Source: Oscillospiraceae bacterium (lineage in GTDB: Bacteria > Bacillota > Clostridia > Oscillospirales > CAG-272). From it: a stretch of 44,978 nt of DNA. Numbering within the stretch: the stretch's first letter is position 1; every line of letters starts with the position of its first letter. The notes beneath the pieces are model-generated. The model did not search any database and was not told where the DNA came from. It saw nothing but the letters and a program-made list of their open reading frames with translations. A program made the position numbers and the translations under genes. Below are positions 6,812-24,059 of this stretch, piece by piece. The DNA lies in contig SVTT01000005.1 of the NCBI GenBank assembly GCA_015063625.1, positions 1 through 44,978 of the forward strand. Direction: 5' to 3'.

Positions 6812-6845
6812 TCGGGTACAAATCGTCGAGCCCTTGCTCTACAAT
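6812..6845 (+). promoter_or_regulatory. Boxed promoter 1 of the phage-like operon
   Basis: A 21-bp box (6812-6832, containing tcgggtacaaatcgtcgag) is followed after 7 nt by TACAAT (6840-6845). A poor -35 (TACAAA at 6817-6822, 17-nt spacing) lies inside the box. The same box with the same 7-nt gap to a -10-like TATCTT occurs at 10492-10525. A weak -35 inside a conserved box suggests an activator-dependent promoter. This is inference from position and repetition only. Confidence 0.55.
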
Positions 6846-6876
6846 ACAGGGGAGAAAAAAGAAACAAGGAGGCGTT

Positions 6877-7365
6877 ATGAGCAATGAAACAGGCATGGGC
6901 GGTGCACCCCTTGCGCCGCCTGCCGCAGGACGGCGAAGAAAAAAGGAACGGGAGCTGCTTCCCGCCGCCATGGGGGATGGGGAGCTTGCATCACCCGTGA
7001 AGCAGCACGCGGGCTTCAGCAGGCAGGTGATCTCGCGTGCTCGGGCATATTTTGACGCACCGCGCTGGAGTGAAAGCTACCGCGCCTGGTTTTTTCCGAC
7101 GCGTGCGGGGCTTGCAAGGGAGCTCGGCATTACGGGCAGGACTCTTTCCGAGTGGGAGCGTGAGCACACTGCGCTTGCCGACGTCATTGCAGACGGCATG
7201 GAGCGCAGCAAGGAGCTCCGCATTGCCTTTGCCGAGGCAGAGCACATCAATCCCACCTTCTGCCGCTTCGTGCTGGGGGCACTTTACGGTATGAAGGACG
7301 GGGATGCCGAGGAGGAGGGCGCGGAGCAAAAGCCCTTTGAGGTCAATATCCGCGTGGTCAAGTGA
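6877..7365 (+). CDS. Putative terminase small subunit
   Basis: A 162-aa protein directly before TerL. The middle holds a helix-turn-helix-like segment (RAGLARELGITGRTLSEWERE, about residues 88-108) followed by helices, as in the small terminase subunits that recognise DNA for packaging. The N-terminus is low-complexity and basic (GRRRKKERE), and the C-terminus ends in acidic residues plus a short EVNIRVVK strand. The start at 6877 follows an aaggagg site; a longer frame would run through the upstream terminator. Assignment rests on the HTH, the size and the neighbour TerL. Confidence 0.75.
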   Translation: MSNETGMGGAPLAPPAAGRRRKKERELLPAAMGDGELASPVKQHAGFSRQVISRARAYFDAPRWSESYRAWFFPTRAGLARELGITGRTLSEWEREHTALADVIADGMERSKELRIAFAEAEHINPTFCRFVLGALYGMKDGDAEEEGAEQKPFEVNIRVVK

Positions 7366-7374
7366 GGAATGGCG

Positions 7375-8730
7375 ATGGAGATCACGCTGACCGAAAAGCA
7401 AAAGATGTTCATTGACGCCTCGGCGGACGAGGTGCTTTACGGTGGTGCTGCGGGGGGAGGAAAATCCTTCGGTCAGGTCATCGACGCGCTGCTTTACGCC
7501 CTGCGCTATGCCGGCTCGCGCCAGCTCATTCTGCGCCGCACCTTCCCCGAGCTTGACAAGACGCTGATCCGCACGGCGCTTGCCCTGTATCCAAGGGAGA
7601 TCTTTAAATATTCGCAGACCTCGCGCATGGGACGCTTTGTCAACGGCAGCATCATCGATTTCGGTTATTGCGATGCGGAAAATGACGTGTACCGTTACCA
7701 AGGCGGCGAATATGACGTCATTCGCTTCGACGAGCTGACGCATTTTACCGAGTTCCAGTATCTTTATCTCATCTCCCGCCTGCGCGGAACCACGCCCTTC
7801 CCACGCTCGGTGCGCTCCTCGACCAACCCGGGGGGCGTGGGACACGGCTGGGTGCGTGCGCGCTTTGTGGATCCCGCCCCACCCTTTACGGTATTCTCGT
7901 CGGGGAAGGGGGATACCACGCGCGTCTATCTCCCCGCCACGGTGAAGGACAATTTGTTTCTGATGCGAGAGGACCCCGATTACATCGCAAGGCTTGAAAA
8001 TCTTCCCGATAAGCAGAAGCGGGCATTGCTTTACGGCGACTGGAACATTTTTGACGGGCTTCGCTTTACTGCCTTTGACGAGAGCGTGCACGTGATCGAT
8101 CCCTTCGAGATCCCGCGCGGGTGGCGGCGCTATCGGGTGCTTGACTACGGACTTGACCGTCTTGCCGTTTATTGGATCGCGGTGGATGGGGATCGTAATG
8201 CCTACGTCTATCGCGAGTACTGCGAGAGCAATCTCATCATCTCCGCCGCCTGCCGCGCCATCAGGGAGCGCACCGACGAGGAGATCTACTGCACGCTGGC
8301 ACCCCCCGATCTCTGGTCGCGCGGACAGGAAACGGGAAAGAGCCGCGCACTTCTCTTTGCCGACCACGGCGTTCCTCTTGTGTCGGTCAGCAACGACCGT
8401 GCCGCAGGGTGGGCGGCGGTGGATGAGCTTTTGAAGGTGGAGGAGGGGGGACGTGCCAAGCTGAGGATCTTCCGCAATTGCACCGAGCTGATACGGTGTC
8501 TGCCCCAGCTGCAGATCGATCCGCAAAAGCCCGATGACGTGATGACCGAGCCCCACGACATCACGCACGCCCCCGACGCCCTACGCTATTTTGCCGTTTT
8601 TTTCACCAAGCCCTGTAAAAGGGAGGAGGAGATGCGCCTTCCGTGGACGGCGGATATGCACGAGGATTTTCGCCATGCCTCTCCCGAGGAGCGAAAAATG
8701 CTGCTGCGTGCGTGGGGCAGACCCAAATAA
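7375..8730 (+). CDS. Terminase large subunit (TerL)
   Basis: A 451-aa DNA-packaging motor. The N-terminal ATPase has Walker A GGAAGGGKS (about residues 23-31), Walker B VIRFDEL (about 112-118) and a coupling motif SSTNPGG. The C-terminal RNase-H-like nuclease has acidic residues in VLDYGLD and at the end in PDDVMTEPHDITHAPDALRY. All catalytic motifs are intact. The ATG at 7375 is preferred to 7369 because gagg at 7364-7367 is properly spaced only for the former. The gene is packed between the small subunit and portal genes. Confidence 0.95.
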   Translation: MEITLTEKQKMFIDASADEVLYGGAAGGGKSFGQVIDALLYALRYAGSRQLILRRTFPELDKTLIRTALALYPREIFKYSQTSRMGRFVNGSIIDFGYCDAENDVYRYQGGEYDVIRFDELTHFTEFQYLYLISRLRGTTPFPRSVRSSTNPGGVGHGWVRARFVDPAPPFTVFSSGKGDTTRVYLPATVKDNLFLMREDPDYIARLENLPDKQKRALLYGDWNIFDGLRFTAFDESVHVIDPFEIPRGWRRYRVLDYGLDRLAVYWIAVDGDRNAYVYREYCESNLIISAACRAIRERTDEEIYCTLAPPDLWSRGQETGKSRALLFADHGVPLVSVSNDRAAGWAAVDELLKVEEGGRAKLRIFRNCTELIRCLPQLQIDPQKPDDVMTEPHDITHAPDALRYFAVFFTKPCKREEEMRLPWTADMHEDFRHASPEERKMLLRAWGRPK

Positions 8731-8749
8731 TACAAAAAGGAGAAACAGG

Positions 8750-10519
8750 ATGGTAATCAAAGGAGAAAAAATCGATTATTTCAAGGACCTTCTGCGCAAG
8801 AGCGAGCAGGGGAGAGATGAGGCGTTTGAGGACATACCCGCAAACCGTGAGCAGTACCGCGGCAGCGATCGGCTGGACGGCAGTGCGGAGCGTGCGGCGA
8901 TGGTGCGTAACATCACCTATGAGCTGGTGGAGGCGCAGGTGTCGACCCTGATACCCTCGCCCCGCGTGGATGCCAAGGTCTGGTCCGAAAAGGGGGCGCG
9001 CAATGCCGAGAGCATCGAGCGCCTTTGCCGCGATCTGCGTAACGAGCTGCCCTTCGAGCGACTCAATGACATCTGTGAGCGCCTCACCTACGTGGAGGGG
9101 GGATCGGTCTGGCTGATCGAGTGGGACGAAACGCTTTGCCATCACGGCGAGCAGGGCGGAGTCCGCATCACCTGCAGCAGCGCCGAGGACTTTTTTCCGC
9201 AGCCAGGTATCTATCACGTGGAGGACATGGAGTGGGTGATCCTGCGCTGCCGCGCGGGTCTTGACGAGCTGGAGAGCAAATACGGCGTTGCGGTGGGCGA
9301 GGCTCCTGAGGAGGATGAGCTGTTCATCGTCTATACCGCCTTTTACCGCAACGATGCGGGGCGTGTATCCAAATTCGTGTGGACGGGAAATACCGTGCTG
9401 CTTGACGTCGAGGACTACTATGCCCGTAAGCACGAGGTGTGCGAGCGCTGCGGAAAGCTGCGCACGCTTTCGGGTGTGGAGGAGCATTGCGTGTGCGGCG
9501 GCAGGTTCTTGTCAAGAAGCCTGCCCTTTGAGGTGCTGACGGCAGATCTGACGCGCTCGGACGGCAGTGTGATCAGGGCGAGAGAGAGGAGCGTTCTGAA
9601 AAACGGGGAGGAGAAGGATGTGCCCACGCAGCTTCCGTGGTATCGCCCCTCGCGCTTTCCCGTGGTGGTTCGCAAGAATACCTCGCGGGAGGGCTCCGTG
9701 CTCGGTCAGTCCGACTGCCGCTTCATCCGCCGCCAGCAGCAGGAGATCAATAAGGTCGAGAGCCGTATTCACGATAAGCTCATGTCGGCGGGCTGCTATC
9801 CCGTCAAGCCCGAGGACGTGGATTTCCAGTATGACGATACCGTCGGCGTGCAGGTTCTGAACATTCCCGAGGGCAAGAGCAGAAACGATTTCGGCGTGAT
9901 CGACATGCTTCCCTCGCTGGTCGGGGAGCAGTCGCAAAGCGACCGCCTTTACGAGCATGCCAAGCGCATCCTCGGCATCAGCAATTCCTTTCTTGGGCAG
10001 GAGGATCACACCGCCGCATCGGGCACTGCCAAGGCAACGCAGATCGCCCAGTCAGCAGGACGCCTTGACAGCAAGCGCGTGATGAAGAATGCCGCCTATG
10101 CGGAGATCGACCGCATTATTTTCGAGCTTTATCTCGCCTTCGCGGATGAGCCCCGTCCCGTCGCCTTCACCGATGCGTTGGGGAGAAAGCAGAACGGCAG
10201 CTTCCACCGATACGATTTTCTTGAGCGCGACGCCGAGGGCAATTGGTATTACGAGGACCGGTATCTGTTCTCGGCTGACTCCAGCGGCGCTGCCGATCTG
10301 TCGCGCGAGCGCATTTGGCAGATGAATATGGAGAGCTTCAAGGCGGGCGTATTCGGAGATCCTCAGGCAGCCGCCACACTGCTGCGCTATTGGCTGATGC
10401 AGGAGCGTGCGCATTATCCGAGCGCCCGTGAGAATGTGGAATATTTCCGTGCAATGCTCGCCGAGGAGCAGGCGCGGGGCATCTCTTCAGGTCGGGTACA
10501 AATCGTCGAGCCTTCGTGA
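8750..10519 (+). CDS. Portal protein with an inserted zinc-ribbon-like segment
   Basis: A 589-aa portal, the dodecameric ring through which DNA enters the head. Support comes from its place between TerL and the scaffold/capsid genes, its size, and the pattern of a portal core (VRNITYELVEAQVSTLIPSPRV near the N-terminus; QQEINKVESRIHDKLMSAG and the long helical stretch around GTAKATQIAQSAG later). Residues about 230-251 contain CERCGK...HCVCGG, a four-cysteine zinc-ribbon-like pattern not typical of portals. The true start follows aaaaaggag. The last codons lie inside the second copy of the 21-bp box, so coding and promoter functions overlap there. Confidence 0.85.
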   Translation: MVIKGEKIDYFKDLLRKSEQGRDEAFEDIPANREQYRGSDRLDGSAERAAMVRNITYELVEAQVSTLIPSPRVDAKVWSEKGARNAESIERLCRDLRNELPFERLNDICERLTYVEGGSVWLIEWDETLCHHGEQGGVRITCSSAEDFFPQPGIYHVEDMEWVILRCRAGLDELESKYGVAVGEAPEEDELFIVYTAFYRNDAGRVSKFVWTGNTVLLDVEDYYARKHEVCERCGKLRTLSGVEEHCVCGGRFLSRSLPFEVLTADLTRSDGSVIRARERSVLKNGEEKDVPTQLPWYRPSRFPVVVRKNTSREGSVLGQSDCRFIRRQQQEINKVESRIHDKLMSAGCYPVKPEDVDFQYDDTVGVQVLNIPEGKSRNDFGVIDMLPSLVGEQSQSDRLYEHAKRILGISNSFLGQEDHTAASGTAKATQIAQSAGRLDSKRVMKNAAYAEIDRIIFELYLAFADEPRPVAFTDALGRKQNGSFHRYDFLERDAEGNWYYEDRYLFSADSSGAADLSRERIWQMNMESFKAGVFGDPQAAATLLRYWLMQERAHYPSARENVEYFRAMLAEEQARGISSGRVQIVEPS

Positions 10520-10525
10520 TATCTT
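10492..10525 (+). promoter_or_regulatory. Boxed promoter 2, before the scaffold and capsid genes
   Basis: An exact second copy of the 21-bp box (10492-10512) lies in the 3' end of the portal gene, with TATCTT at 10520-10525 after the same 7-nt gap as in promoter 1. It would give extra transcripts for the 39-aa, scaffold-like and capsid genes, which are needed in high copy number. This is inference; no transcript data are available. Confidence 0.5.
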
Positions 10526-10587
10526 GTTATTGACAGGAAAAAAACGCCCTCTTGTCAGCATCCCCGTATCGGAAGGGAGGTGAGAGA

Positions 10588-10707
10588 ATGAAGGAATTTG
10601 CTACCAACAAGGCGGGTGTGATCAAGGCACCCCATCCCGTGCAGAACGAGCCGAGCGCCAAGGTTAAGATCGGCGAGGATCTGCGTTCTGCCAAAAGCAA
10701 CAAATAA
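10588..10707 (+). CDS. Small 39-aa protein between portal and scaffold genes
   Basis: A short basic, lysine-rich protein (starts MKEFATNKAGVIKAPHPVQ). It has a good ggaagggagg ribosome site and lies in the gap between portal and scaffold-like genes on the same strand. No family is recognised. Its conserved setting in a particle operon suggests a small structural or assembly role, but the sequence does not show one. Confidence 0.6.
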   Translation: MKEFATNKAGVIKAPHPVQNEPSAKVKIGEDLRSAKSNK

Positions 10708-10744: not shown

Positions 10745-11254
10745 ATGGAAGAAATTTTGAAAGCACAAGAAAATGACCCGATCGCCGAGAGCTGCGACGG
10801 GGAAAAGGAGCACTGCGTACCGACGGATGCCGAGCCCAACGTTGCGGACGTAACCGTGCATGAGGAGGGGGCGTCGGGCATTGCCGGGGAAACGGAGGAC
10901 GCTTTTTCTGCCGAGGCAGATTTTGAGGAGATCATCGGGCTTTTTCCCGAGCTTGCGATCACCGAGCCCGCATGTATCGCACATGCCGACCGTTACGGTG
11001 AGCTTCGCCGAATGGGGCTTTCGGTGAGGGAGGCGTTTCTTGCCACCAATACGGAGCTGGTCAAAAGAGAGGCGGCTGCTGCAGGGGAGAGCCGAGCGCG
11101 TGCAAAGGCGCATCTCACGGGCATCGGCAGACGGTCGGGCAGTGCAAGCGGCTCTCCAATGACGGGTGCGGAAAGAAGCGTGATGCGCGAGTTCTTCGGG
11201 GACGGCGTCAGTGACGCCACGCTGGAGCAGTACTGGCGCGCCGCGAGAGGATAA
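10745..11254 (+). CDS. Putative scaffold or capsid-assembly protein
   Basis: A 169-aa protein. The first 80 residues are strongly acidic, the middle is helical and charged (REAFLATNTELVKREAAAAGESRARAKAHL), then comes a Ser/Gly-rich basic linker and a helical end (MTGAERSVMREFFGDG). Acidic helical proteins of this size encoded just before the capsid gene are usually scaffolds. The ATG at 10745 follows aaggagg at a 6-7 nt distance. Function is assigned by composition and position only. Confidence 0.65.
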   Translation: MEEILKAQENDPIAESCDGEKEHCVPTDAEPNVADVTVHEEGASGIAGETEDAFSAEADFEEIIGLFPELAITEPACIAHADRYGELRRMGLSVREAFLATNTELVKREAAAAGESRARAKAHLTGIGRRSGSASGSPMTGAERSVMREFFGDGVSDATLEQYWRAARG

Positions 11255-11318: not shown

Positions 11319-12437
11319 ATGCCTGTAATTTTCAACACGACCAACAGTGGCCACAGCAGGGGCAATGCCATGATCGGCAGATTTGAGACCCCCATCAAGG
11401 CCATCATCATGCATGAATCCGACGTTTGCAGCAAGAACGATGATATCGTCAAGGCGCTGTTCAACGTTTCCCGTTCCAACAAGTTCGGTGAATCGGTGGT
11501 CATGCAGAACGAATTTGATATCTTTGCACCCACTGCGGAGGGTGCCGAGGCTCCCTCGGTCACTTACCGCGAAACGGCGTCCAAGTTTATCAGACACACC
11601 ACCTTTAAGTCGCAGTTCCGCATCACCCGTGAGATGATGGAGGATTCTCAGATCAATCAGATCGCCGCTAAGGCAGAGAACTTCACACGCTCCTATTACC
11701 GTACCCGTAACCTGTTTGCCACCAAGCTTCTCACGGGTGCGACGGCAGGTGCTGACGGCACGGGCACCACGGTGACCTTCGGCCCTGCGGGGGCGACCCA
11801 GACCTTCGACATCACCACTGCCGACGGTGTTCCGCTGTTTTCCGCGGCACATACCGCCTCGCCCAACCGCTTTCACGCGGTGTCGGGTGCGGGTGTCACC
11901 CCCGCGATGGTGGAATCTGTGATCTCCGCCGCCGTTTCCAAGGTGCGCAATATGCGCGACGAGAACGGCTATCCCATGGGCTATACCGCTGATACCATCG
12001 TCATCCCCTGTGACGACCCCGCCCTTGAGTCTGCCGTCAAAAAGGTGCTCGGCTCCGAGTTTCTCGGGGGCGAGGGCGGTATGCTCTCCGGCAGCATCAA
12101 CCTGCATTACGGCAACTGGAATCTGATCATCGATCCGCTTTGGCAAAGAAGCGTGGCGACCTCGCATCCCATGATCATCTTTTCCTCTGCCGCACGCCGC
12201 AATCTGCAGGCGGCAATGTTCTTCGACAGAACGCCGCTTGACGTCAGCGATTTCGTGGACGAGGCAACGCTTGACTACATGTGGACGGGCTATGCGCGTA
12301 TGAGTGCGGGCTTTGTCACCCACAAGTGGGGCTGCCTTGTCGATATCCTTGACAGCGGCACCACCGCGCTCTTTGACGGTGCTGCCACGGGTGAGGGCGG
12401 CGCAGCCACCGCGCAGTCTGCGGTGCTCACGCTCTGA
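11319..12437 (+). CDS. Major capsid protein (HK97-fold-like)
   Basis: A 372-aa protein in the capsid position. The N-terminal half has an extended arm and the ETASKFIRHTTFKSQFRITREMM stretch, typical of Mu gpT-like and HK97-type capsids in which a long helix follows an E-loop. Later come an Ala/Gly-rich surface loop, FSAAHTA, the P-loop-like strands DTIVIPCDDPALESAV, and SAARRNLQAAMFFDR with a C-terminal GYARMSAGF strand. It has the strongest ribosome site of the operon (aaggagg, 11307-11313), matching a protein needed in hundreds of copies. The stop overlaps the next start (TGATGA). Confidence 0.85.
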   Translation: MPVIFNTTNSGHSRGNAMIGRFETPIKAIIMHESDVCSKNDDIVKALFNVSRSNKFGESVVMQNEFDIFAPTAEGAEAPSVTYRETASKFIRHTTFKSQFRITREMMEDSQINQIAAKAENFTRSYYRTRNLFATKLLTGATAGADGTGTTVTFGPAGATQTFDITTADGVPLFSAAHTASPNRFHAVSGAGVTPAMVESVISAAVSKVRNMRDENGYPMGYTADTIVIPCDDPALESAVKKVLGSEFLGGEGGMLSGSINLHYGNWNLIIDPLWQRSVATSHPMIIFSSAARRNLQAAMFFDRTPLDVSDFVDEATLDYMWTGYARMSAGFVTHKWGCLVDILDSGTTALFDGAATGEGGAATAQSAVLTL

Positions 12438-13309
12438 TGACCTACGCGGAGCTTGAAGGCGCAGTAAAGGATCTTGGCTTTGAAACCGACGTCGAATCGA
12501 GAAGCGCGTTGGTATCTGCCACGAATCGGGCGCTTTCACAGATCGCGCGCTCCTATGCCCCCACGGGCACGCTTTGCGTCACGCAAAGCGTGCCCTGTGC
12601 CCTCTATCCGATTGCACGGACGGTGGGCGCGGGCGGATACACCTTTTCCTGCTCCGGGGCGCGTGCGGTATCCTTTCTCACCTGTGGCACGGGCCGCTTT
12701 GAGATCCTTTTTGAAGGGGAGGCAGTGGCGCGCGAGAGCACGTCGAGCGCGGTCTGGCGCATGCGACAGTTCCTTGCGCCGCGACGGGGCACACTGACGG
12801 TCACCTTTTGGGGAAGCGAGGACAGAGAGGAGCTCACGGTCAAGTCGCTTGCATTTTTTGAAAGCGTGTCGGTGGCAGGCGAGGGCGCAGTGCCGAGCTT
12901 TGAGAAAAATGCACTGATCTATACGCTCCCCACCATGCAAAGCGATCTCCTTTACGGCGTGCAGACCCCCGTTGATGAAGCGGGGGACAGCATACCGGGC
13001 GCGTATTTCTCCGCCGACCACCGTATCCTGTTTGTGCCCGTGGATTATCGGGGGGAGATCAGCTTTCTTTACCGCCGCCGATACCGTCAGGCGCGCCTGG
13101 AGGATTTTGCCCTCGGTACGGGAGAGGTGGACATCTATGAAACGGTTGCCGATCTGCTTCCGCTCCTGGTGGCATCCTATATCTGGTTGGATGACGATCC
13201 TGTCAAGGCGGAGCACTATAAGGCTCTTTACGATGAGGAGCTGAGAAGACAGCGATTTTCATTGACACCTCGTTTTGCACATACTGCAAGCCGTAGGGGG
13301 TGGCGCTGA
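12437..13309 (+). CDS. Putative head-tail adaptor / tail-tube-like protein
   Basis: A 290-aa protein that overlaps the capsid gene by one base and the next gene likewise. The N-terminal helix and the C-terminal helical block (YETVADLLPLLVASYIWLDDDPVKAEHYKALYDEEL) resemble adaptor proteins that sit below the portal. Residues about 60-160 look like an inserted beta-sandwich (GGYTFSCSGARAVSFL, FEILFEGE, GTLTVTFWG). In short-tailed phages a protein of this kind pairs with a large nozzle protein, and the next gene fits that. No close family is named with certainty. Confidence 0.65.
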   Translation: MTYAELEGAVKDLGFETDVESRSALVSATNRALSQIARSYAPTGTLCVTQSVPCALYPIARTVGAGGYTFSCSGARAVSFLTCGTGRFEILFEGEAVARESTSSAVWRMRQFLAPRRGTLTVTFWGSEDREELTVKSLAFFESVSVAGEGAVPSFEKNALIYTLPTMQSDLLYGVQTPVDEAGDSIPGAYFSADHRILFVPVDYRGEISFLYRRRYRQARLEDFALGTGEVDIYETVADLLPLLVASYIWLDDDPVKAEHYKALYDEELRRQRFSLTPRFAHTASRRGWR

Positions 13310-16300: not shown

Positions 16301-16395
16301 AGCAATATCTTCTTCGGGATGGCGGCTGGTGTCGTCCCTTCGGGATCTACTCGCTTGCCTACCGCTATACGATCGCGGGAAGGATCAAAGGATGA
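13309..16395 (+). CDS. Large nozzle-like (tail tube B-like) protein
   Basis: A 1028-aa beta-rich protein. Near residue 45 it has AENMYRDYHSEQGGAVETVPGFRRI, the kind of opening seen in podoviral nozzle and stabilisation proteins of the T7 gp12 / P22 gp10 type, followed by propeller-like repeats (AVHAGGALRLCRL, SNGSRFYLLDGTDYFVLT, GDRLFFAVRNQIYTF). Around residues 540-640 the motif YDGRIFLAGNPRLPNTVFYSASDD is typical of these proteins. ATG at 13309 follows aggggg. No tape-measure gene accompanies it, consistent with a short, non-contractile tail. Confidence 0.7.
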   Translation: MANRSYGAAVGAESTRFLPEEGSFRGVDLSSGASSVARTRLAYAENMYRDYHSEQGGAVETVPGFRRIFDLGETVYGAWRYEDPDGEEYLAVHAGGALRLCRLRDEAVLTLSTPISPTPSLAFSNGSRFYLLDGTDYFVLTKQEGRFSLDRVFGRAYVPTVMRHGKEAEQYNMLSDSVGIESLATEGAVYKAYTVHDGNSGAFGRYSGRSAFVSVDQLFDNFNYNAFADTEARVIYTANRMVRWGEDSPDGRVHTLVVDGKRDGATIMNTLPLAALENICFLSTEGGKISFLDAPPFSPRRAYRISYGKEKREMAELFSDPARAMAMLPPNLVIRPGQVLRTGIRATLAPPKSEDDYNNARRDAYDEIARSAYVTPFSENELPYSELIRVFSQDGEVYVACGGAVPLSSSEEMGGENHYLLAGIATQEGAEYLMLRIYVAGSEEDVVASTDVTGCDLRPILIEAPTDATAVLEAYAAGEHAVAAEMRDSDGELTGVVVLAVPDGREIGLRLHIRELTAPSLAGHPTFKGGNPDYTGGAYAAIAGCTMVAQYDGRIFLAGNPRLPNTVFYSASDDAGVADPTYFGVLDFFNDSADGGAVMGLMVTHSVLAVFKRNRILYHTARTGEGLVSRRYPCTEGGGGIGCIAPKSLCNFRDDPLFLSPAGVVGIGKESVLLERTLRCRSAMVNTALLAEEARESAEAVEWDGWYCLFVDGRVYMADSRAMYTDAMGEHQYEWFYLTGIGAHHNDYPVYRSVTGAVTVEGEPVYMGECLIGNDTVKHRIFISDEDLFFCEDENDVNYSPVYRGYLYRADGTRIGEEQHLYAFSGGTAYLVEQTEERRGGVFEAAHYPTAVGDRLFFAVRNQIYTFNTDRRGVAYTTTYGTESVTEPVAPDRIHRSFYSFAGHAIGSVLATALDDCGAPHLTKSTSKYSMVIRAKVMDASAFSVNVYTDRRAAWEAVELRSNTSLNFYNDDFTNQTLQVADDAIYVSSEKEKRWVEKQYLLRDGGWCRPFGIYSLAYRYTIAGRIKG

Positions 16396-18116: not shown

Positions 18117-18604
18117 GTCTTGAAAGGATCTCGAGTGAGGCGGTGATCGCCCGATCGGTGGAGAGCCTGTCCAATCACCCGGGTGCGGCATCCCGCTACG
18201 GCACGGGCGGACTTTCGCCCACGGCGCTCAAGCGCCAATACGATGCGCTGGCAAGGCTTTGCATCGACAAGATCAACGAGCTGATCGACGCCATCAAGGG
18301 AGAGAACGGGCAAAGTCCCATTCTTCTTGAGATCAAGACGGCGTTCGGGGACGGGTTTGATGAGGGCGACCGTCTCTCGCTTGCCGAATTTCTCATGCGT
18401 GTTTACGCAGGAGAGTATGGTGCGGGCGAGGGAAGCACGAGTGTGCTTTATCGCTTTGGCAACGGACTTCGCTTTGATCTTGACAGCGGCACACTTTCGC
18501 TCGATACCGCAGAGCATATGGAGGAGGGCTGCGAGAAGCCCGTAACGTCGGGGGCGGTGTTTGCCGTGCTCGGCGACATCCGTGCGCTGCTTGCCACCAT
18601 TTAG
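18113..18604 (+). CDS. Second fibre/baseplate protein sharing the anchor domain
   Basis: A 163-aa protein whose first 45 residues repeat those of the preceding fibre (SLERIS..., LSNHPGAASRYGTGGLSPT). The DNA is also close, which shows duplication. The middle is a short beta segment (LRFDLDSGTLSLD) and the end, KPVTSGAVFAVLGDIRALL, is common in phage tail proteins. It starts with ATGA overlap and a strong ggaggagg site. It may be an accessory or shortened fibre that competes for the same socket. Confidence 0.7.
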   Translation: MSLERISSEAVIARSVESLSNHPGAASRYGTGGLSPTALKRQYDALARLCIDKINELIDAIKGENGQSPILLEIKTAFGDGFDEGDRLSLAEFLMRVYAGEYGAGEGSTSVLYRFGNGLRFDLDSGTLSLDTAEHMEEGCEKPVTSGAVFAVLGDIRALLATI

Positions 18605-18669: not shown

Positions 18670-19911
18670 ATGGCACAAGTAACAGAGCAGATCGCGACAC
18701 AGATCGACAATCTGCGTCAGTGGCGAGACGTCCTGCGGGATACGCTGGTATCCTTCGGCGTCGCCAACAGTGAGGATACGCTGGGTGCACTGGTGGAGAT
18801 CGTTGCCGCCATGCGTAACAACGGCGCCGTCAATATCGCCGTCAAGGAGGGGGATTCCTATACCATTCCCGCAGGCTATCACGACGGCACGGGCGTCGTG
18901 ATCGCGCAGACCGACCCCGAGGGGGATTATGAGCGCTATCAGCTGCAAAGCAAGAGCGTGACACCCACCAAATCGGCGCAGAGCGTGGCGCCCGACGACG
19001 GCTTTTACGGGCTTTCCGGCGTGACGGTGCAAAAGATCCCCGATGCCTATCAGGATGTCAGCAAGGTGACTGCCACCGCCCCTGACGTGTTGGCGGGAAA
19101 GATCGTGGTCACGGCGGGAGGCGCGGTCATCACGGGCAGTATGAAAAATCATCAAGGCATGAACAGAATCCTGACAAATAACGAGAAGAGCTTTACCATC
19201 CCGGAGGGCTATCACACCGGCACAGGTGAGGTCAAGATCATGACAGAGGAGCGTGACGTGATCCCCACCGAGAGTGTGCAGGAGATCCTTCCCGATGCCA
19301 TTCACGTTCTGAGCAAGGTTACGGTGGAGGCGATCCCCGCAACCTATGCCAATACCTCCGCTGCCACACTCAGCACCGAGGATCTGCTGTCGGGCAAGGT
19401 CGCCTTCGGCACGCAGTCGGATGCCGAGAGTGGCGAGCAGGTTGCTGTCAAGCTGATCGGCACTATGGTCAATCGGGGCGCTTATCTGGGCGAGATGGAT
19501 GGCATCAGCGAGGACAGCTATACCATTCCGAAGGGCTATCACGACGGAAACGGCAGGATCAAGCTGACCTCCGCCATTGCCGATGCGCTCGCGGAGATCG
19601 TGGGCGCTGCACCCACCGTAGAGAGCGGGGAGTGTTACGTGCTCTTCAAGCAGGGGTGGACAAATACCGATAAGCTGGACGTCTATGTGGACGATCAGTT
19701 CATCGGCACCTCGGATATGGTGAGCGGAATCTATTACGGTAAGCATGTGAGGATCTCGGGTAATGTTCCCTACGGCAAGGTCAACATGGTGTCCAACGCC
19801 GACTTTACGGTCAGCTCCACCACGCGGGACGATTACGTTTCCTACGACATTGTCGTTGAAGCCGATCTTGTGAAAAACACCTTGGTCGAGTATCTGAGGC
19901 TGGAGGCATGA
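18670..19911 (+). CDS. Repeat-containing tail fibre-like protein
   Basis: A 413-aa protein. The N-terminal helix (TEQIATQIDNLRQWRDVLRDTL) is followed by three copies of an IP-GYH motif: YTIPAGYHDGTG (64-75), FTIPEGYHTGTG (175-186) and YTIPKGYHDGNG (284-295). They lie in units of about 110 residues that also repeat V-PT-S-Q...LS-VTV--IP-AY. The C-terminal 100 residues form a beta domain. Such repeats are common in Firmicute phage appendage proteins of unknown fold. A fibre or receptor-contact role is inferred from position and repeats. Confidence 0.65.
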   Translation: MAQVTEQIATQIDNLRQWRDVLRDTLVSFGVANSEDTLGALVEIVAAMRNNGAVNIAVKEGDSYTIPAGYHDGTGVVIAQTDPEGDYERYQLQSKSVTPTKSAQSVAPDDGFYGLSGVTVQKIPDAYQDVSKVTATAPDVLAGKIVVTAGGAVITGSMKNHQGMNRILTNNEKSFTIPEGYHTGTGEVKIMTEERDVIPTESVQEILPDAIHVLSKVTVEAIPATYANTSAATLSTEDLLSGKVAFGTQSDAESGEQVAVKLIGTMVNRGAYLGEMDGISEDSYTIPKGYHDGNGRIKLTSAIADALAEIVGAAPTVESGECYVLFKQGWTNTDKLDVYVDDQFIGTSDMVSGIYYGKHVRISGNVPYGKVNMVSNADFTVSSTTRDDYVSYDIVVEADLVKNTLVEYLRLEA

Positions 19912-19912
19912 T

Positions 19913-20344
19913 ATGGGAACGGGAGAGCTGCTCAATACGCTTCGACAAAATCTGGATCGTGCCTTTGAACGGATTCGGGCGCGCGGCGTGTATGTGCCAG
20001 CGGGTGTGAATAGCTTCGACCTTCCGTTGTTGATCGATCAGATCGGTCTGAAGGATCTGCCCGGTTATATCGTCACATTTTCGGTGGCAGCGTGCTATTT
20101 TATCCAGAATAACGACATCGGCGTGCGTATCGACGGTGTCGACATCACGCCCGACGCGACGGACAGCTACCGCTGCGATACCGTCTGCTTTTATCTTAAG
20201 AACGGGCAGGAAAATCCGTTGGTCCTGGATGGGGATATCTATTGCAATGGCGACTCCTTCATTTGGAACCTTTACGAATTTGTGCCCGGTCAAACCATGG
20301 AGCTGACGGGGAACAGCTGGTTTAAAAACATCTATTTTAAATAA
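19913..20344 (+). CDS. Small particle protein, unknown
   Basis: A 143-aa protein beginning 2 nt after the upstream stop. It opens with a helix (ELLNTLRQNLDRAFERIRARG), then a beta-rich part with several Cys and aromatic residues (FSVAACYFIQNNDIGVRIDGVDITPDA). The helical start resembles that of the preceding fibre-like protein, so it may be a second appendage subunit. No family is recognised. Confidence 0.55.
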   Translation: MGTGELLNTLRQNLDRAFERIRARGVYVPAGVNSFDLPLLIDQIGLKDLPGYIVTFSVAACYFIQNNDIGVRIDGVDITPDATDSYRCDTVCFYLKNGQENPLVLDGDIYCNGDSFIWNLYEFVPGQTMELTGNSWFKNIYFK

Positions 20345-20364
20345 AAAACAGGAAAGGAGAAGCT

Positions 20365-20730
20365 ATGACAGTCATGAAATTGCCCTGCGGCTTCGTGTGG
20401 CGCAGGGAGCAGCGTGTGCGACTCCCCTTGCGCGTCACGGTGCGCGGGGGTGAGGCAAAGGAGATGCAGGTCAACGGAAGGGTGCTCTTGCCCCTTGACG
20501 ATGACGGCGCCTTTTTGCTCGATCGCACGGTGCTGCGTGACGGCATCAATTACATTCTGCTGGACGGCATTGAGTGTGAGGCTTTGCGTGTGCAGGGGGA
20601 CGTGGCTTGCCCTGCGGGCTTTTCGCCCCGCGATCTGCTTTCGCTTGCCGTGCTGATCGATCGGCAGGAGAAGCGCATTGCCGTGCTGGAGGAGGCACTG
20701 CAAAAAACCAAAAAGGATTGGTTGATCTGA
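20365..20730 (+). CDS. Small beta-domain plus coiled-coil protein, unknown
   Basis: A 121-aa protein. Residues 1-80 are predicted beta strands (RVRLPLRVTVRGGEAKEMQVNG, GAFLLDRTVLRDGINYILLDG), and the end is a short coiled coil (LAVLIDRQEKRIAVLEEALQKTKKDW). Proteins of this plan often follow fibre genes in Firmicute phages. It has an aaaggag site. Function is unknown; a chaperone or linker for appendages is possible. Confidence 0.55.
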   Translation: MTVMKLPCGFVWRREQRVRLPLRVTVRGGEAKEMQVNGRVLLPLDDDGAFLLDRTVLRDGINYILLDGIECEALRVQGDVACPAGFSPRDLLSLAVLIDRQEKRIAVLEEALQKTKKDWLI

Positions 20731-20745
20731 GGAAAGGAGAATACT

Positions 20746-21459
20746 ATGACAAGGAAAAAAAGAATTGCGGCGTCGGTCTTGCTGTTGCTGCTGTTCACAC
20801 TGCTGGCGTCGCTCCCGGTGCTTGCCGCCGAGGGATCGGTCGGCGAGACACCGACGGAGGGGATGCTCCCGATCCCCGAGGAGCAAATGCACGAGGAGCA
20901 GAGCCGCGGAGAGGATGCGGCGATGAGCTTGACGGAGGAGATCATGGCGTATGTGACCGAGCACGCCTCGGGGATCGTGGTGGCGCTTTCCGCGCTTTGG
21001 GCGGTCTTCCCCAAGGTGGGCGGTCTTGCCGTGCTCATCGACGTGTTCAAAAAGATCAAGAGCTATTTTGATGACGAGCATAACAAGCAGTCGATCTACA
21101 ATGTGATCGCGGGCAACGCCGATGCGATGTCTCGCTTTATGAACGACGTCTATCCCATGGTGGAGGAGATCGCACGGGGAGAAAAAACGGTTTCCGCATG
21201 CGTTGCCGAGCTGCAAAGCTCGGCACAGGAGCAGAAAAAGCTGCGTGCCGCCCTGCTTGCCTGCCGTGATGCCACGGCGCTGATGGCAAAGGAGTTTTGT
21301 GATCTTATTTCGATCTCCACCACCGTCAGCGAAAAGAAAAAGGCGGAGCTGGAGGGAGAATGGATGAATGCAAACAAGCGGATCGAGGCGGCGGTGGCGG
21401 AGATCGTCGGAGAAAGCGAGAGGGCATATGACGGCGAAACGCAAGGCGTTGCTTCTTGA
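20746..21459 (+). CDS. Exported/membrane protein with coiled coil, unknown
   Basis: A 237-aa protein with a clear signal peptide (KKRIAASVLLLLLFTLLASLPVLA, cleavage probably before AEG), an acidic linker, one hydrophobic segment (about residues 75-105) and a long charged helical region to the end. It is the first of three consecutive membrane proteins that close the phage-like operon, where lysis genes usually stand. No hydrolase motif is present. It could anchor or help release particles, but this is a guess from position. Confidence 0.6.
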   Translation: MTRKKRIAASVLLLLLFTLLASLPVLAAEGSVGETPTEGMLPIPEEQMHEEQSRGEDAAMSLTEEIMAYVTEHASGIVVALSALWAVFPKVGGLAVLIDVFKKIKSYFDDEHNKQSIYNVIAGNADAMSRFMNDVYPMVEEIARGEKTVSACVAELQSSAQEQKKLRAALLACRDATALMAKEFCDLISISTTVSEKKKAELEGEWMNANKRIEAAVAEIVGESERAYDGETQGVAS

Positions 21460-21817
21460 TCTGACGGGTGCGGGGGTGTCCTTCCTGGCACCCACCGTGG
21501 CGGCGGTGGTGGAATTTCCCCGTGCCGAGGAGGCGCTTCAAGCCTCGGGCGGTGGGCTTGCGGGGTTGCTTCGGATGTCCTCGGCGGCATTCGCCGTTGC
21601 CCTTGTGCTGCTGCTTCTTACCTGCTGGCGATTTGTGGCGCATCGGCTGAAGCTGCCACGCAGCGGATTTATACTGTCGGGGGCACTATTTTTGCTGGCG
21701 CACGGGGTCGAGCCGCTGATCCACAGCTTCAAGATCATCATGTTCTGGTCGATGCTGGGATGCGGCGTCGCTACCGTCCTTTATGCCCTTTCGGATCGCT
21801 TGAAGAGGGAGGTGTGA
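21428..21817 (+). CDS. Small multi-spanning membrane protein, holin-like by position
   Basis: A 129-aa protein with about three hydrophobic segments (residues about 12-30, 48-72 and 78-118) and a basic C-terminus (SDRLKREV). It overlaps the upstream gene by 32 bases. Size, topology and place at the end of a particle operon fit a holin, but no holin family signature is recognised and no endolysin gene is near. Confidence 0.5.
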   Translation: MTAKRKALLLDLTGAGVSFLAPTVAAVVEFPRAEEALQASGGGLAGLLRMSSAAFAVALVLLLLTCWRFVAHRLKLPRSGFILSGALFLLAHGVEPLIHSFKIIMFWSMLGCGVATVLYALSDRLKREV

Positions 21818-21820
21818 TCG

Positions 21821-22759
21821 ATGGGGGAATACGGCTGGGATCAGAAAACGGGCGCGCCCGTATGCCGCGAAAACGGTTATATGAGCGTTGCCGAACGGAT
21901 CGAAACGGGAGGGGCGAGGCTGAAAAAGAGCATCGGGGATCATCTGAACACCTTTTCTCTGCTGGTGCTGGTGATCCTGCAGATCGCTGTGCCCTTTGTA
22001 ACGGCAGGGCTTCGCAATCCCTTTACGGCGGAATATCTGTTTTCTTCCATGTGCAACGTGGCGTCGACCCTGCTTGCCTACTATCTGTTCGTGCCCAATG
22101 GGAAGCACGATCGCATGCGCACCGAAAGCTATCTCGGGGCGGTGACAGCACACCGTGCGGCAAGCGAGCGCGTGCGGAGCGAGGGGCTGCTCTCTCGCTT
22201 CCGCACCTATTGCCGCGTGCGTGCGAGGGCGGAGGCGGCAGAGCTTTTTGAAGGTCGCCTGGAGGCACTGGAGAATGCGGGGGTGTCACGCGAGGTGTTT
22301 GAGGAGCACTACCGTTCGCTCGGGCGCCGTCGGCTTTTTGCGGCACGCTATCTGCACGGCGCGCTGACGGGCGAGCAGTACCGCATGGTGCTGCTTTGCC
22401 GCCGCACCGTAGCAGTGCGGCCCATCAGCCCGAACCTTCTCCTGACGGGCGCTGAAAGCGCACGGGTGAGCGATTCGGTGCGTGCCGACTCGTCATTTGA
22501 ACGGCGCGCCATGGCGACAAAGCCTCTTTTTTGCATTGCTTCGGTGCTGCTGCAATCGATCTTCGAGCTGGCAGGACGGGAGGAGCTTGATCCTTTTGTG
22601 ATGATCACCGGTATCGTCATCCGAGTGTTTCTTGTCTGTTGGGCATCGCTTGCGGGCTACCGAACGGGATTGCGCATCGTGCTTCATCGCACGGCAGATA
22701 TCGAGAACCGCACCGCCTTTCTCCATGAGTTTCTGGAGGAGATCGGGGAAAAGCCATAA
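21821..22759 (+). CDS. Membrane protein with central cytoplasmic domain, unknown
   Basis: A 312-aa protein. Two hydrophobic segments lie near residues 45-90 (LLVLVILQIAVPFVTAG, NVASTLLAYYLFVP), then comes a charged helical domain (about 95-220), then two further segments (CIASVLLQSIFELAG, MITGIVIRVFLVCWASLAGYRTG). The stop codon is followed at once by a terminator, so this is the last gene of the operon. It starts 3 nt after the previous stop. No family is recognised. Confidence 0.6.
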   Translation: MGEYGWDQKTGAPVCRENGYMSVAERIETGGARLKKSIGDHLNTFSLLVLVILQIAVPFVTAGLRNPFTAEYLFSSMCNVASTLLAYYLFVPNGKHDRMRTESYLGAVTAHRAASERVRSEGLLSRFRTYCRVRARAEAAELFEGRLEALENAGVSREVFEEHYRSLGRRRLFAARYLHGALTGEQYRMVLLCRRTVAVRPISPNLLLTGAESARVSDSVRADSSFERRAMATKPLFCIASVLLQSIFELAGREELDPFVMITGIVIRVFLVCWASLAGYRTGLRIVLHRTADIENRTAFLHEFLEEIGEKP

Positions 22760-22804
22760 AAAAATGCCGTTGCAGGCTTACCTGCAACGGCATGATCTTT
22801 TTTT
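22760..22804 (+). terminator. Terminator closing the phage-like operon
   Basis: A perfect 13-bp stem (22764-22776 with 22781-22793) is followed by a T-run. A run of A on its other side lets it also end the leftward gene at 22815. It therefore separates the structural operon from the regulatory switch. Confidence 0.93.
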
Positions 22805-22814
22805 GGGGGTACGG

Positions 22815-23132
22815 TCACTCCGAAAGATTGAGGTTGCGCGAGATCTCGTTCATGACGCCGCGGCGCATGGCGTAAAACTGATTTCTTCCACAATAGGCAA
22901 CCGTGTGCTCAAAGGGTAGGTTGTCGATCAGGGATTTTTTGATCTGCCCTCGGATGACGCGGTCGGGGCAGACCAGCAGCCCCTTGTCCACTGCCTCGTT
23001 GAGCCGTCGGTACTCGGCAAGCAACTCGGCACGACGGGGATTGCCTCGCTCACCTCTTCCGATCTCGGCGGCGCGGTCACCGTAGCCGTGACAAATGGAT
23101 TTGATCATGATCTTCGTGTGCTTGTTCATCAT
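22815..23132 (-). CDS. Small leftward regulator-like protein of the switch
   Basis: A 105-aa basic protein. It has an N-terminal helix, a GYGDRAAEIGRGERGNPRRAELLAEYRRLN stretch, and a C-terminal end LPFEHTVAYCGRNQFYAMRRGVMNEISRNL. That end recalls the helix-turn-helix end of phage late regulators of the ArpU/RinA kind, but the likeness is weak. The start at 23132 follows aaggagg; a longer frame would run through the operators. It is transcribed from a consensus promoter divergent from the S24 repressor. In phage logic the gene facing away from the repressor is the repressed effector, so it is a good candidate activator of the boxed promoters. Confidence 0.55.
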   Translation of the reverse strand: MMNKHTKIMIKSICHGYGDRAAEIGRGERGNPRRAELLAEYRRLNEAVDKGLLVCPDRVIRGQIKKSLIDNLPFEHTVAYCGRNQFYAMRRGVMNEISRNLNLSE

Positions 23133-23183
23133 ATCGTATACACCTCCTTGGTGGATCGGCCGTCTTGCGGCAATTGGGTTGTT

Positions 23184-23200
23184 GTGACTTGCCAAGTTAC
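23184..23200. promoter_or_regulatory. Operator-like palindrome O1
   Basis: gtgacttgccaagttac is a near-perfect 17-bp palindrome (gtNacttg-N-caagttac). It lies in the leader of the leftward transcript. It shares its half-site with palindromes at 23287 and 23325 and with the half-site in the repressor promoter at 23360. Confidence 0.7.
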
Positions 23201-23286
23201 CACGTCCGGTTGAAAATGCACCCTGTCGGTCGGACCGACGAGGCGTGGGGCTGACGCTTGATCGGTCTGCACAAGGGATACGGAGA

Positions 23287-23301
23287 TAACTTGTTAAGTT
23301 A
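23287..23301. promoter_or_regulatory. Operator-like palindrome O2
   Basis: taacttgttaagtta is a 15-bp near-palindrome sitting at the start-site region of the leftward promoter, where a bound repressor would block initiation. Confidence 0.7.
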
Positions 23302-23306
23302 CTGCG

Positions 23307-23335
23307 ATTATAGCACACCGAAAGTGACTTGTCAA
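23307..23335 (-). promoter_or_regulatory. Leftward promoter of the 105-aa gene
   Basis: On the minus strand TTGACA (23335-23330), a 17-nt spacer and TATAAT (23312-23307) match consensus exactly. The -35 lies inside operator O3 and the start region lies at O2. The resulting leader of about 165 nt contains O1 and a 15-bp palindrome at 23225-23239. Confidence 0.88.
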
Positions 23336-23339
23336 GTTA
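23325..23339. promoter_or_regulatory. Operator-like palindrome O3
   Basis: tgacttgtcaagtta is a near-perfect 15-bp palindrome covering the -35 of the leftward promoter. It is the best match of the set to the shared form tNacttg-N-caagtta. Confidence 0.75.
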
Positions 23340-23359
23340 TTTTGAAAAATTTTTTGAAA

Positions 23360-23397
23360 AACTTGACAACTGACAGTTTATGTGCTATCATGATAGC
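23360..23397 (+). promoter_or_regulatory. Repressor promoter with overlapping operator half-site
   Basis: TTGACA (23363-23368), a 17-nt spacer and TATCAT (23386-23391) drive the S24 gene. The sequence aacttgacaactga around the -35 is a diverged operator, suggesting autoregulation. The -10 also lies in a 14-bp palindrome gctatcatgatagc (23384-23397), possibly a site for another factor. Confidence 0.75.
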
Positions 23398-23426
23398 ATA
23401 AGCCCTACAAATAAGGAGAGCAAAAT

Positions 23427-24059
23427 ATGACGATCGGTGAAAAGATCAGAGATCTAAGACTCAAAAGGGGTCTTTCGCAGGAGGATATCGCCCGTGCGCT
23501 GGGCACGACCAAGCAGGCGGTCTATAAGTACGAAAGCGGCATCGTCACCAACATTCCCGTAGATAAGCTTGAACGGATCGCAGGGCTTTTGGGGGTGTCG
23601 CCCGCGTATCTTGCGGGCTGGCGGAGCACCGAGCTCGCCTTCTCCGAGCTGCCGACCAACGTGCGTCCCATTGCGACCAGGCGCTTTCCGATGCTGGGAG
23701 AGATCGCGTGCGGAGAACCAATCTTCGCCGAGGAGAATCACGAGTCCTATGTGGATGCCGCTGCCACGATCGATGCCGATTTTTGCCTGACGGCAAAGGG
23801 GGACAGCATGACGGGTGCACGCATCCATGACGGCGACGTGGTCTTTATCAGGCAGCAGCCCATGGTGGAGAACGGGGAGATCGCCGCAGTCGTCATCGAA
23901 AACGAGGCGACCCTCAAGCGCTGGTATTACTATCCGGAGGATAAAAAGCTGATCCTTTGTCCCGAAAACTCGGCATTCGCGCCTTTGGTCTTTGTGGGGG
24001 CGGAGCTGGAGGGGATCATCTGCCTCGGCAAGGCGGTATCCTTCATGAGTCATCTTTGA
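23427..24059 (+). CDS. LexA/CI-like repressor: XRE HTH plus S24 self-cleaving domain
   Basis: A 210-aa phage-type repressor. Residues 4-58 are an XRE helix-turn-helix (LSQEDIARALGTTKQAVYKYESG). Residues about 88-205 are a peptidase S24 domain with the cleavage region IACGEPIF (Cys95-Gly96), nucleophile Ser127 in GDSMTG and general base Lys164. In known members RecA filaments trigger self-cleavage after DNA damage, which lifts repression. Divergent promoters and three palindromes with a shared half-site lie just upstream. It is the only obvious master regulator of the phage-like locus, although it might also act on genes elsewhere. Confidence 0.9.
   Translation: MTIGEKIRDLRLKRGLSQEDIARALGTTKQAVYKYESGIVTNIPVDKLERIAGLLGVSPAYLAGWRSTELAFSELPTNVRPIATRRFPMLGEIACGEPIFAEENHESYVDAAATIDADFCLTAKGDSMTGARIHDGDVVFIRQQPMVENGEIAAVVIENEATLKRWYYYPEDKKLILCPENSAFAPLVFVGAELEGIICLGKAVSFMSHL

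What the first reader, a model, noticed from the sequence alone, without database searches (positions are those of the whole stretch)
6812..24059. Intact short-tailed phage-like particle locus with no integrase, replication, tape-measure or endolysin gene
Seen: sixteen intact, tightly packed rightward genes (small terminase, TerL, portal, scaffold-like, capsid, adaptor, nozzle-like, fibres, membrane proteins) plus a two-gene regulatory switch, between housekeeping genes with host-like base composition and ribosome sites. Known: a functional prophage normally needs an integrase and lysis genes, and a decaying one shows broken frames; neither is the case here. Inference: the locus may be maintained by selection as a gene-transfer agent, a killing or delivery particle, or a satellite-like element, built on a podovirus-type rather than a siphovirus-type plan.
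Basis: partly seen in the sequence, partly recalled or inferred. Interest (0 to 1): 0.88.

Follow-up and report, generated by a model that had tools for sequence, protein, structure and literature searches.

The report
Integrase-free short-tailed phage locus, possibly domesticated
A bacterial chromosome carries an intact set of short-tailed-phage particle genes with a repressor switch but no integrase, replication or recognised lysis gene; related loci in another genus of the family are kept and inherited much like ordinary bacterial genes, so this is probably a host-kept DNA-packaging particle, though a freshly trimmed virus is not excluded for this genome.

Summary
Window 6877-24059 carries 16 intact rightward genes (TerS, TerL, portal, a 39-aa gene, scaffold-like, capsid, connector and nozzle candidates, fibres, three membrane proteins), a leftward small gene and an S24 repressor; no integrase, replication, tape-measure or endolysin family was recognised.

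For domestication: in genus g23 the capsid of a homologous 'compact' cluster is in 51 of 60 genomes (17 of 19 good ones). In 27 loci examined the core genes are open frames wherever no contig end cuts them, dN/dS is low, TerL and portal follow RpoB (the capsid does not), neighbours recur within clades, and 26 of 27 have no tyrosine integrase on the contig. In g7 it is in 6 of 7 genomes. Related viral contigs instead often carry a giant gene upstream of the scaffold; compact loci, the window's included, lack it. Against: in the window's genus the type is sporadic (3 of 21), and its nearest relative (G007) looks like a temperate phage.

Best reading: a compact, GTA-like element from a temperate podophage, with an SOS-type repressor, a candidate late activator and twin late-promoter boxes. 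Closest published: FpGTA of Faecalibacterium (2026); homology to it was not testable. No packaging was measured.

The parts
6809..6832 (+). late-promoter box 1, upstream of TerS; followed by 7 nt and TACAAT (6840-6845)
   Evidence: 23/24 identical to box 2; the 21-nt core occurs only at these two places in the genome with up to 3 mismatches, control 0; G007 has its own unrelated perfect 33-nt pair at the equivalent places. Promoter role inferred.
6877..7365 (+). g1 TerS, 162 aa
   Evidence: PF16677 GP3_package E 5e-8, phrog_3064; HTH_3 match E 0.018, below its cut-off
7369..8730 (+). g2 TerL, 453 aa
   Evidence: phrog_979 E 2e-48, PF03237
8750..10519 (+). g3 portal, 589 aa; last codons coincide with box 2
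   Evidence: phrog_156 E 2e-27; C-terminus differs from G007 and G020 portals
10489..10512 (+). late-promoter box 2; followed by 7 nt and TATCTT (10520-10525)
10588..10707 (+). small basic protein, 39 aa
   Evidence: similar 45-66-aa genes at the same place in 7 g23 loci, 47 aa in G020, seen in the G007 sequence
10745..11254 (+). g4 scaffold-like, 169 aa
   Evidence: position; profile found in 46 loci, window included; no family match
11319..12437 (+). g5 major capsid protein, 372 aa
   Evidence: phrog_371 E 3e-11, PF25209
12437..13309 (+). g6 connector/adaptor candidate, 290 aa
   Evidence: position; profile found in 43 loci, window included; no family match
13309..16395 (+). g7 nozzle candidate, 1028 aa, beta-rich
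   Evidence: phrog_3287 E 8e-7; AlphaFold2 model mean pLDDT 67.7, residues 185-457 under 50
16392..18116 (+). g8 tail fibre/tail protein, 574 aa
   Evidence: phrog_5302 E 1e-35
18113..18604 (+). g9 fibre-related, 163 aa, N-terminus like g8
18670..19911 (+). g10, 413 aa, threefold internal repeat
   Evidence: phrog_13589 E 2e-21; 55-nt repeats
19913..20344 (+). g11, 143 aa, unknown
20365..20730 (+). g12, 121 aa, unknown
20746..21459 (+). g13, 237 aa, N-terminal signal/TM plus one TM
   Evidence: hydropathy; profile found in 32 loci, window included
21428..21817 (+). g14, 129 aa, three TM, holin-like (inference)
   Evidence: hydropathy; profile found in 31 loci, window included
21821..22759 (+). 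g15, 312 aa, two TM, all-helical model
   Evidence: AlphaFold2 mean pLDDT 76; profile found in 31 loci, window included
22815..23132 (-). g16, 105 aa, candidate late activator (inference)
   Evidence: profile found in 7 loci, window included; opposite a repressor in g7 L085, L089 and in G042, G147; no Pfam, PHROG or NCBIfam match below E 0.05
23187..23371 (.). four ACTTGNCAAGT sites (23187, 23289, 23327, 23361) over divergent promoters: minus strand TTGACA-17-TATAAT (23335-23307), plus strand TTGACA-17-TATCAT (23363-23391); operator role inferred
   Evidence: 6 matches in window against 0.89 expected, largest of 100 shuffles 5
23427..24059 (+). g17 XRE + S24 (CI/LexA-type) repressor, 210 aa
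   Evidence: PF00717 E 5e-22, PF01381 E 4e-16, phrog_4

Best explanation
The locus is a compact, GTA-like particle cluster derived from a temperate short-tailed phage of the kind seen in genome G007. Shown: the G007 relative has 535- and 2998-aa genes between portal and scaffold and further leftward genes past g16; the window has neither, yet keeps every particle gene open, a repressor switch and both repeat boxes. Shown for relatives: the compact form is widespread and largely vertical in genus g23 and present in 6 of 7 genomes of g7. Inferred mechanism: the S24 repressor sits on four operators over the divergent g16/g17 promoters; DNA damage makes it self-cleave, g16 is made and activates the two late promoters; TerS/TerL fill small heads from cellular DNA; a short nozzle with fibres delivers it; g13-g15 help release. 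Not shown: that particles form, what they package, and whether they deliver it.
For: Intact genes. g23: 51 of 60 genomes, 17 of 19 good ones, no stop in any of 58 matches of a 150-aa capsid query. In 27 loci examined capsid, g6 and g7 are whole open frames in 27 of 27, TerL in the 24 where it is on the stretch, portal in 24 with 2 cut by contig ends and 1 off the stretch. dN/dS or its bound is below 0.65 in 60 of 60 gene comparisons, at or below 0.45 in 58. TerL and portal distances follow RpoB (Mantel r 0.68, 0.70; 0 of 5000); trees share the strong clades, and five neighbour classes need the minimum 4 changes. No PF00589 gene on the element contig in 26 of those 27 genomes. g7: 6 of 7 genomes. 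Giant gene: of 56 viral-contig loci 25 have it, 10 are compact, 21 undetermined; of 27 g23 loci 25 are compact, 2 undetermined. Five giant proteins scanned: three have polyvalent-type domains above cut-off (PBECR3; ART-PolyVal and MuF_C; LPD38), one an LPD3 match below cut-off, G007's none. A second genome of the window's genus, G020, is also compact. Boxes are 23/24 identical in the window but unlike the G007 pair: the pair stayed alike while changing. Switch.
Against: In the window's genus only 3 of 21 genomes have this type, and G007's looks like a temperate phage: leftward genes past g16, beside tRNA-Gly, 100% identical over about 24 kb to a catalogued viral contig. G000 and G020 have different neighbours, so no fixed position is shown in this genus. 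Capsid distances in g23 do not follow RpoB (r 0.09, 1099 of 5000), and capsids of giant-gene loci can be 81-91% identical to g23 ones: capsid genes seem to be exchanged with phages. g6, g7 and g15 evolve fast. TerS may keep an HTH (E 0.018). No lysis enzyme is recognised. Only 2 of 27 g23 loci have the g16-repressor switch. The boxes are missing in g23 and g7. Nothing here measures packaging, and 17 kb in one place is also what a freshly trimmed prophage looks like.
Confidence: 0.5

Rival explanations
1. A recently trimmed prophage: a G007-like temperate phage integrated, lost its giant-gene, early and integrase regions by deletion, and has not yet decayed.
For: Nearest relative looks like a genuine phage; sporadic in genus; box 2 inside the portal end looks like a deletion junction; no conserved neighbour.
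Against: All 16 genes plus switch intact; both boxes near-identical though unlike those of G007; the same compact layout recurs in G020, g7 and g23.
Confidence: 0.3
2. A killing or delivery particle for the host (PBSX-like): DNA may be packaged but not delivered, and kin without immunity are killed.
For: Repressor switch, particle genes and no replication would also fit; the authors of the FpGTA paper leave this open for FpGTA.
Against: No immunity or toxin gene recognised; no long-tail family found; selection on TerS and TerL (dN/dS 0.09-0.53 in g23 pairs) suggests that DNA packaging matters.
Confidence: 0.1
3. A satellite or defective element that is mobilised by a helper phage supplying integrase, replication and lysis.
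For: Related phage-like elements occur in the same genus (G007) and in viral contigs.
Against: Known satellites usually lack a full particle set (recalled), this has one; no direct repeat over 10 nt joins the two borders; the vertical loci in g23 show no sign of needing a helper.
Confidence: 0.07

Closest known systems
FpGTA of Faecalibacterium prausnitzii (PMC12946183; abstract, passages and sections 9, 10, 26 read)
   Same: Gut Clostridia; TerS, TerL, portal, scaffold and capsid with no replication genes, most likely podovirus-like; operon I (10.5 kb) in all twelve Faecalibacterium genomes its authors examined.
   Different: Window locus is one 17-kb piece including fibres and repressor; FpGTA has a second operon with fibre, holin and endolysin genes in some strains; its TerS has no obvious DNA-binding domain. 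Sequence homology not testable here. The other element of this genus (beside glpK, 9-10 kb) is closer to FpGTA I in content.
RcGTA-type gene transfer agents (Rhodogtaviriformidae; PMC9662315, passages read)
   Same: Particle genes fixed in host genomes and co-diverging with the host (here: TerL and portal in g23).
   Different: 49-nm tail, genes in five loci; no LexA-type repressor next to the cluster (recalled).
Phage-like element G007:C11 / IMGVR_UViG_3300024269_004823
   Same: Same gene order TerS to g16; TerL 74-75%, capsid 63-64% identical.
   Different: Has 535- and 2998-aa genes between portal and scaffold, leftward genes past g16 and a tRNA-Gly neighbour. No integrase was seen on its contig either, which ends about 5 kb past g16.

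Membership tests
Gene transfer agent (six features listed in PMC9662315) | Particle proteins derived from tailed phages | tested here: met
   TerS, TerL, portal, capsid, tail families
Gene transfer agent (six features listed in PMC9662315) | Mostly random host DNA packaged | not testable with these tools
   needs particles
Gene transfer agent (six features listed in PMC9662315) | Fully endogenised in host genomes | tested here: inconclusive
   no integrase or replication family in the locus, no PF00589 on the contig; but the G007 relative looks like a phage
Gene transfer agent (six features listed in PMC9662315) | Locus too large for the head | not testable with these tools
   head size unknown
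Gene transfer agent (six features listed in PMC9662315) | Mostly vertical, co-diversifies with host | tested here: inconclusive
   met for TerL and portal in g23, not for capsid; not shown for the window's genus
Gene transfer agent (six features listed in PMC9662315) | Packaged DNA delivered to other cells | not testable with these tools
   needs experiment
FpGTA | Sequence homology to FpGTA I proteins (e.g. RCH50849.1, RCH50851.1) | not testable with these tools
   no named Faecalibacterium record could be reached
FpGTA | Second operon with fibre, holin and endolysin genes | tested here: inconclusive
   fibres lie in the one locus and no endolysin family was found in it; the rest of the genome was not searched
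Complete temperate prophage | Integrase with attachment repeats at both ends | tested here: not met
   no PF00589 gene on the 109-kb contig (serine recombinases not searched); no shared word over 10 nt between 6000-7000 and 23900-25000
Complete temperate prophage | Replication/early region | tested here: not met
   only repressor and g16 beyond the late genes; nagB follows

The most novel reading that the evidence does not exclude
A family of short-tailed gene transfer agents, widespread and largely vertical in genus g23, probably in g7 and with members in the window's genus, arose from temperate phages by losing the giant (in part polyvalent-type) virion gene, the integrase and the early region; the window shows an early stage that still keeps the phage's repressor switch and twin late promoters.
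Probability: 0.4. Interest if true: 0.85.

Novelty: new variant of a known kind. Interest (0 to 1): 0.7.

Why it matters
According to the FpGTA paper (January 2026) few GTAs are known, nearly all from Alphaproteobacteria, and FpGTA is the first with a podovirus-like plan; that paper saw GTA-like packaging in other gut Clostridia without finding operons for them. Here a related phage group, compact chromosomal loci in several genera, and a simple sequence marker (giant gene present or absent between portal and scaffold) lie side by side in one bacterial family. That makes the step from phage to host-kept particle testable by comparison and points to a gene that is lost. It also warns that some short viral contigs of this type may be bacterial loci.

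Tried and rejected
Attachment site: the 24-nt repeat at 6809 and 10489 was first taken for an att core; set aside because both copies lie inside the element, no third copy exists in the genome, and G007 has an unrelated pair at the equivalent places. A direct search of the two borders finds no shared word over 10 nt.

Empty site of the window locus: nagB-pgm-kinase and the chrA pair recur in the genus, but what adjoins them varies, so no clean empty site could be shown.

g16 as an ArpU/RinA-type activator: a resemblance recalled by eye only; no Pfam, PHROG or NCBIfam match supports it.

Giant gene of G007 as a polyvalent protein: no such domain in a Pfam scan of 2924 of its 2998 residues; 'polyvalent' is kept only for those that match.

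Carbon-cost test for GTA-like composition: g23 proteins are cheaper than those of 6 giant-gene loci in 6 of 6 families, nominally in MCP (148 of 5000), g7 (63) and g15 (16), but rows are related and few; not counted as evidence.

Solved-structure searches by sequence: MCP, portal and TerL no match; g7 matched leucine-rich repeats that some versions carry. Fold searches never ran.

Counts to note: of the 27 g23 loci, 20 were picked by me (high-scoring, mostly on longer contigs; not a random draw, and two of its top 20 were passed over) and 7 came, six of them also; so 26 of the 51 positive genomes were examined and 25 were not. RpoB was found in 24 of the 27. In one search, four of 28 rows showed stops inside the alignment (G253, G273, G235, G075); for G253 and G273 one search finds the capsid gene open, the other two were not followed. 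Direct repeats were shown for 20 of 44 families.
Full report
What is there. The window is the first 45 kb of a 109-kb contig (C21) of a 1.76-Mb, 28-contig draft genome, G000, 94% complete. Between a chromate-transporter-like pair and nagB (names recalled from the sequences) lies a rightward cluster: TerS, TerL, portal, a 39-aa gene, scaffold-like g4, capsid, g6, g7, fibre genes g8-g9, g10-g12, membrane proteins g13-g15, then leftward g16 and rightward S24 repressor g17. Families are assigned for TerS, TerL, portal, capsid, g7, g8, g10 and g17; the other names rest on position and homology. No PF00589 integrase lies on the contig; three are elsewhere in the genome. I did not test whether one of them could act on this locus, and did not search serine recombinases.

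Relatives in the genus. A TerL search of the genus (21 genomes) finds two kinds. The window's kind occurs in G000, G007 (75%) and G020 (62%). A second kind, 37-41% identical, occurs once each in 18 genomes, G007 among them. G007's copy of the window's kind has 535- and 2998-aa genes between portal and scaffold and a run of small leftward genes past g16; it lies beside tRNA-Gly and is 100% identical over 15.2 and 8.5 kb to a catalogued viral contig. I read it as a temperate phage; its contig ends about 5 kb past g16 and no integrase is on it, so this is not proven. G020's copy, on a 4-kb contig, goes portal, 47-aa gene, scaffold, with a host-like gene next to TerS: compact, like the window.

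Relatives in the family. The capsid is found in 27 of 295 genomes of the family, G000 included, concentrated in genera g23 and g7. In g23 it is in 51 of 60 genomes, 17 of 19 good ones; in g7 in 6 of 7. I examined 27 g23 loci. The usual order is TerS, TerL, portal, often a 199-257-aa gene, sometimes a 45-66-aa gene, scaffold, often a small gene (F11), capsid, g6, g7, fibres, g13-g15. Capsid, g6 and g7 are whole open frames in 27 of 27; TerL in 24 (off the stretch in 3); portal in 24 (cut in 2, off the stretch in 1); g15 in 23 (not on the stretch, or not found, in 4). Profile coverage is partial without a contig end for scaffold in several (lowest G333, 0.33), for g13 in G333 (0.76) and often for the variable fibre g8. 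One locus, G189, has TerS-TerL-portal at the other end of the cluster.

Selection and descent in g23. In six close pairs and ten genes, dN/dS or its bound is below 0.65 in 60 of 60 comparisons and at or below 0.45 in 58; the highest, g6 of G346/G327 (0.64), was measured on a stop-to-stop frame about twice the gene's length. Many dS values are near saturation. TerL and portal distances correlate with RpoB (n 21, r 0.68 and 0.70, 0 of 5000 permutations as high); g7 0.56, g6 0.41, g15 0.39, also 0 of 5000; the capsid does not (n 24, r 0.09, 1099 of 5000). The RpoB tree (24 rows) and the TerL+portal tree (21 rows) share their strong clades, and five neighbour classes (ABC-F gene left, F17 right, F33-36, RsgA, CarD; names recalled) need 4 changes on each, the minimum. 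One genome (G314) has both the ABC-F gene and F17, so these two classes are probably one site. Of the 27 genomes only G338 has a PF00589 gene on the element's contig, about 13 kb from the capsid gene; some of these contigs are short.

The giant gene. In viral contigs related by capsid (56 loci) 25 have a large ORF (553-2909 aa, often cut by the contig end) just upstream of the scaffold, 10 have the portal there instead, 21 are undetermined; among the undetermined, L268, L269, L270 and L274 have 1850-2350-aa ORFs further upstream. Among genome loci, 25 of 27 g23 are compact and 2 undetermined; of 14 others 8 are compact (5 of them g7), 4 giant, 2 undetermined, one of the latter being G007, whose giant gene lies on the neighbouring piece. 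Of five giant proteins scanned, L091 has PBECR3, L093 ART-PolyVal and MuF_C, L046 LPD38, all above cut-off; L092 has LPD3 below cut-off; G007 has none. In a quick portal tree of 31 rows the window, G007 and G020 form one clade, five g7 loci another, and g23 a third that contains three of the compact viral contigs: those contigs are probably bacterial loci.

Regulation. Four ACTTGNCAAGT sites, two exact and two with one mismatch, lie within 185 bp between g16 and g17 (6 matches in the whole window, 0.89 expected, largest of 100 shuffles 5), over divergent promoters with near-consensus boxes. G042 and G147 (g23) have an S24-type repressor and L085 and L089 (g7) an XRE gene plus an ImmA-like gene, each opposite a g16 homologue. 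The two 24-nt boxes stand 7 nt before TACAAT and TATCTT. G007 has a perfect 33-nt pair at the equivalent places, of unrelated sequence. In a scan of 31 loci for exact repeats of the TerS-upstream stretch, only 14-15-nt matches appeared, in 7 (G007's own pair is split between two pieces and was found apart). The simplest reading is two late promoters under one activator, perhaps g16; this is inference. In the window box 2 overlaps the portal's last codons, as if a deletion had joined them.

The second element of the genus. The 18 other loci share one layout: glpK, ImmA-like, XRE, then p65, p112, TerS-like, TerL, portal, C4, scaffold, capsid and small genes, each of TerL, portal, scaffold and capsid at profile coverage 1.0 in 18 of 18. 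glpK adjoins in 16; of the other two G016's contig starts at the XRE gene and G001 has none. To the right lie serC-serA in 7, spoVAD in 6; 5 run off the stretch. PHROGs supports TerL, portal and capsid. Only TerL is clearly homologous to the window's (hhalign 100%; portal 68%; others under 5%). In G000 the gene after glpK is serC, then serA and prfB, with no trace of the element between.

Literature. FpGTA (PMC12946183; abstract, passages, sections 9, 10, 26) is the closest published system. GTA criteria are from PMC9662315 (passages only). Searches for GTA with Clostridia, podovirus, Oscillospiraceae, and domesticated prophage with synteny (20 of 26, 15 of 77, 2 of 2 and 1 of 1 papers listed) showed no other report of such loci in this family; the library lacks most subscription papers. 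What polyvalent proteins do is recalled, not read.

Verdict. A particle cluster of this kind is clearly a stable, selected part of bacterial genomes in g23. The window's copy has the same compact plan and a working-looking switch, but stands in a genus where the type is rare and a phage-like element is its sister. I put GTA-like maintenance at about one half and a freshly trimmed prophage at three in ten.

Noticed in passing
L027-L043, L189 (genus g1); absent at G000:C19 (L187 1797-2612): A second, mostly unrelated compact capsid cluster of 9-10 kb (XRE, TerS-like, TerL, portal, scaffold, capsid, small genes) beside glpK, in 18 of 21 genomes of the genus (glpK adjoining in 16), resembling FpGTA operon I in size and content. 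Perhaps the stronger GTA candidate of the two.
   Followed up: partly
L044, L045, L047 and seven more short viral contigs (L227-L233): Compact contigs filed as viral; the three placed in a tree nest inside the g23 chromosomal clade, so they are probably bacterial loci.
   Followed up: partly
L078 (G189:C14): Element order permuted: scaffold to g15 first, then TerS-TerL-portal, as if cut at the portal/scaffold junction.
   Followed up: no
alignment A1, profile positions about 196-346: Some versions of the g7 protein carry a stretch like leucine-rich repeat surface proteins (best PDB match E 8e-57); the matching part of the window's protein is of low confidence in its model.
   Followed up: no
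window 18849-19563: g10 has three 55-nt repeats about 330 nt apart; no homologue of g10 was found in the loci searched.
   Followed up: no
L187 1797-2612: The glpK-serC gap in G000 holds repeated and inverted sequence around the words GTCGAAC/TTCGACTC, perhaps a small mobile repeat (seen by eye).
   Followed up: no
L046, L084: Giant-gene loci whose capsid is 81-91% identical to g23 compact capsids while other genes differ more: capsid exchange between phages and chromosomal loci.
   Followed up: partly
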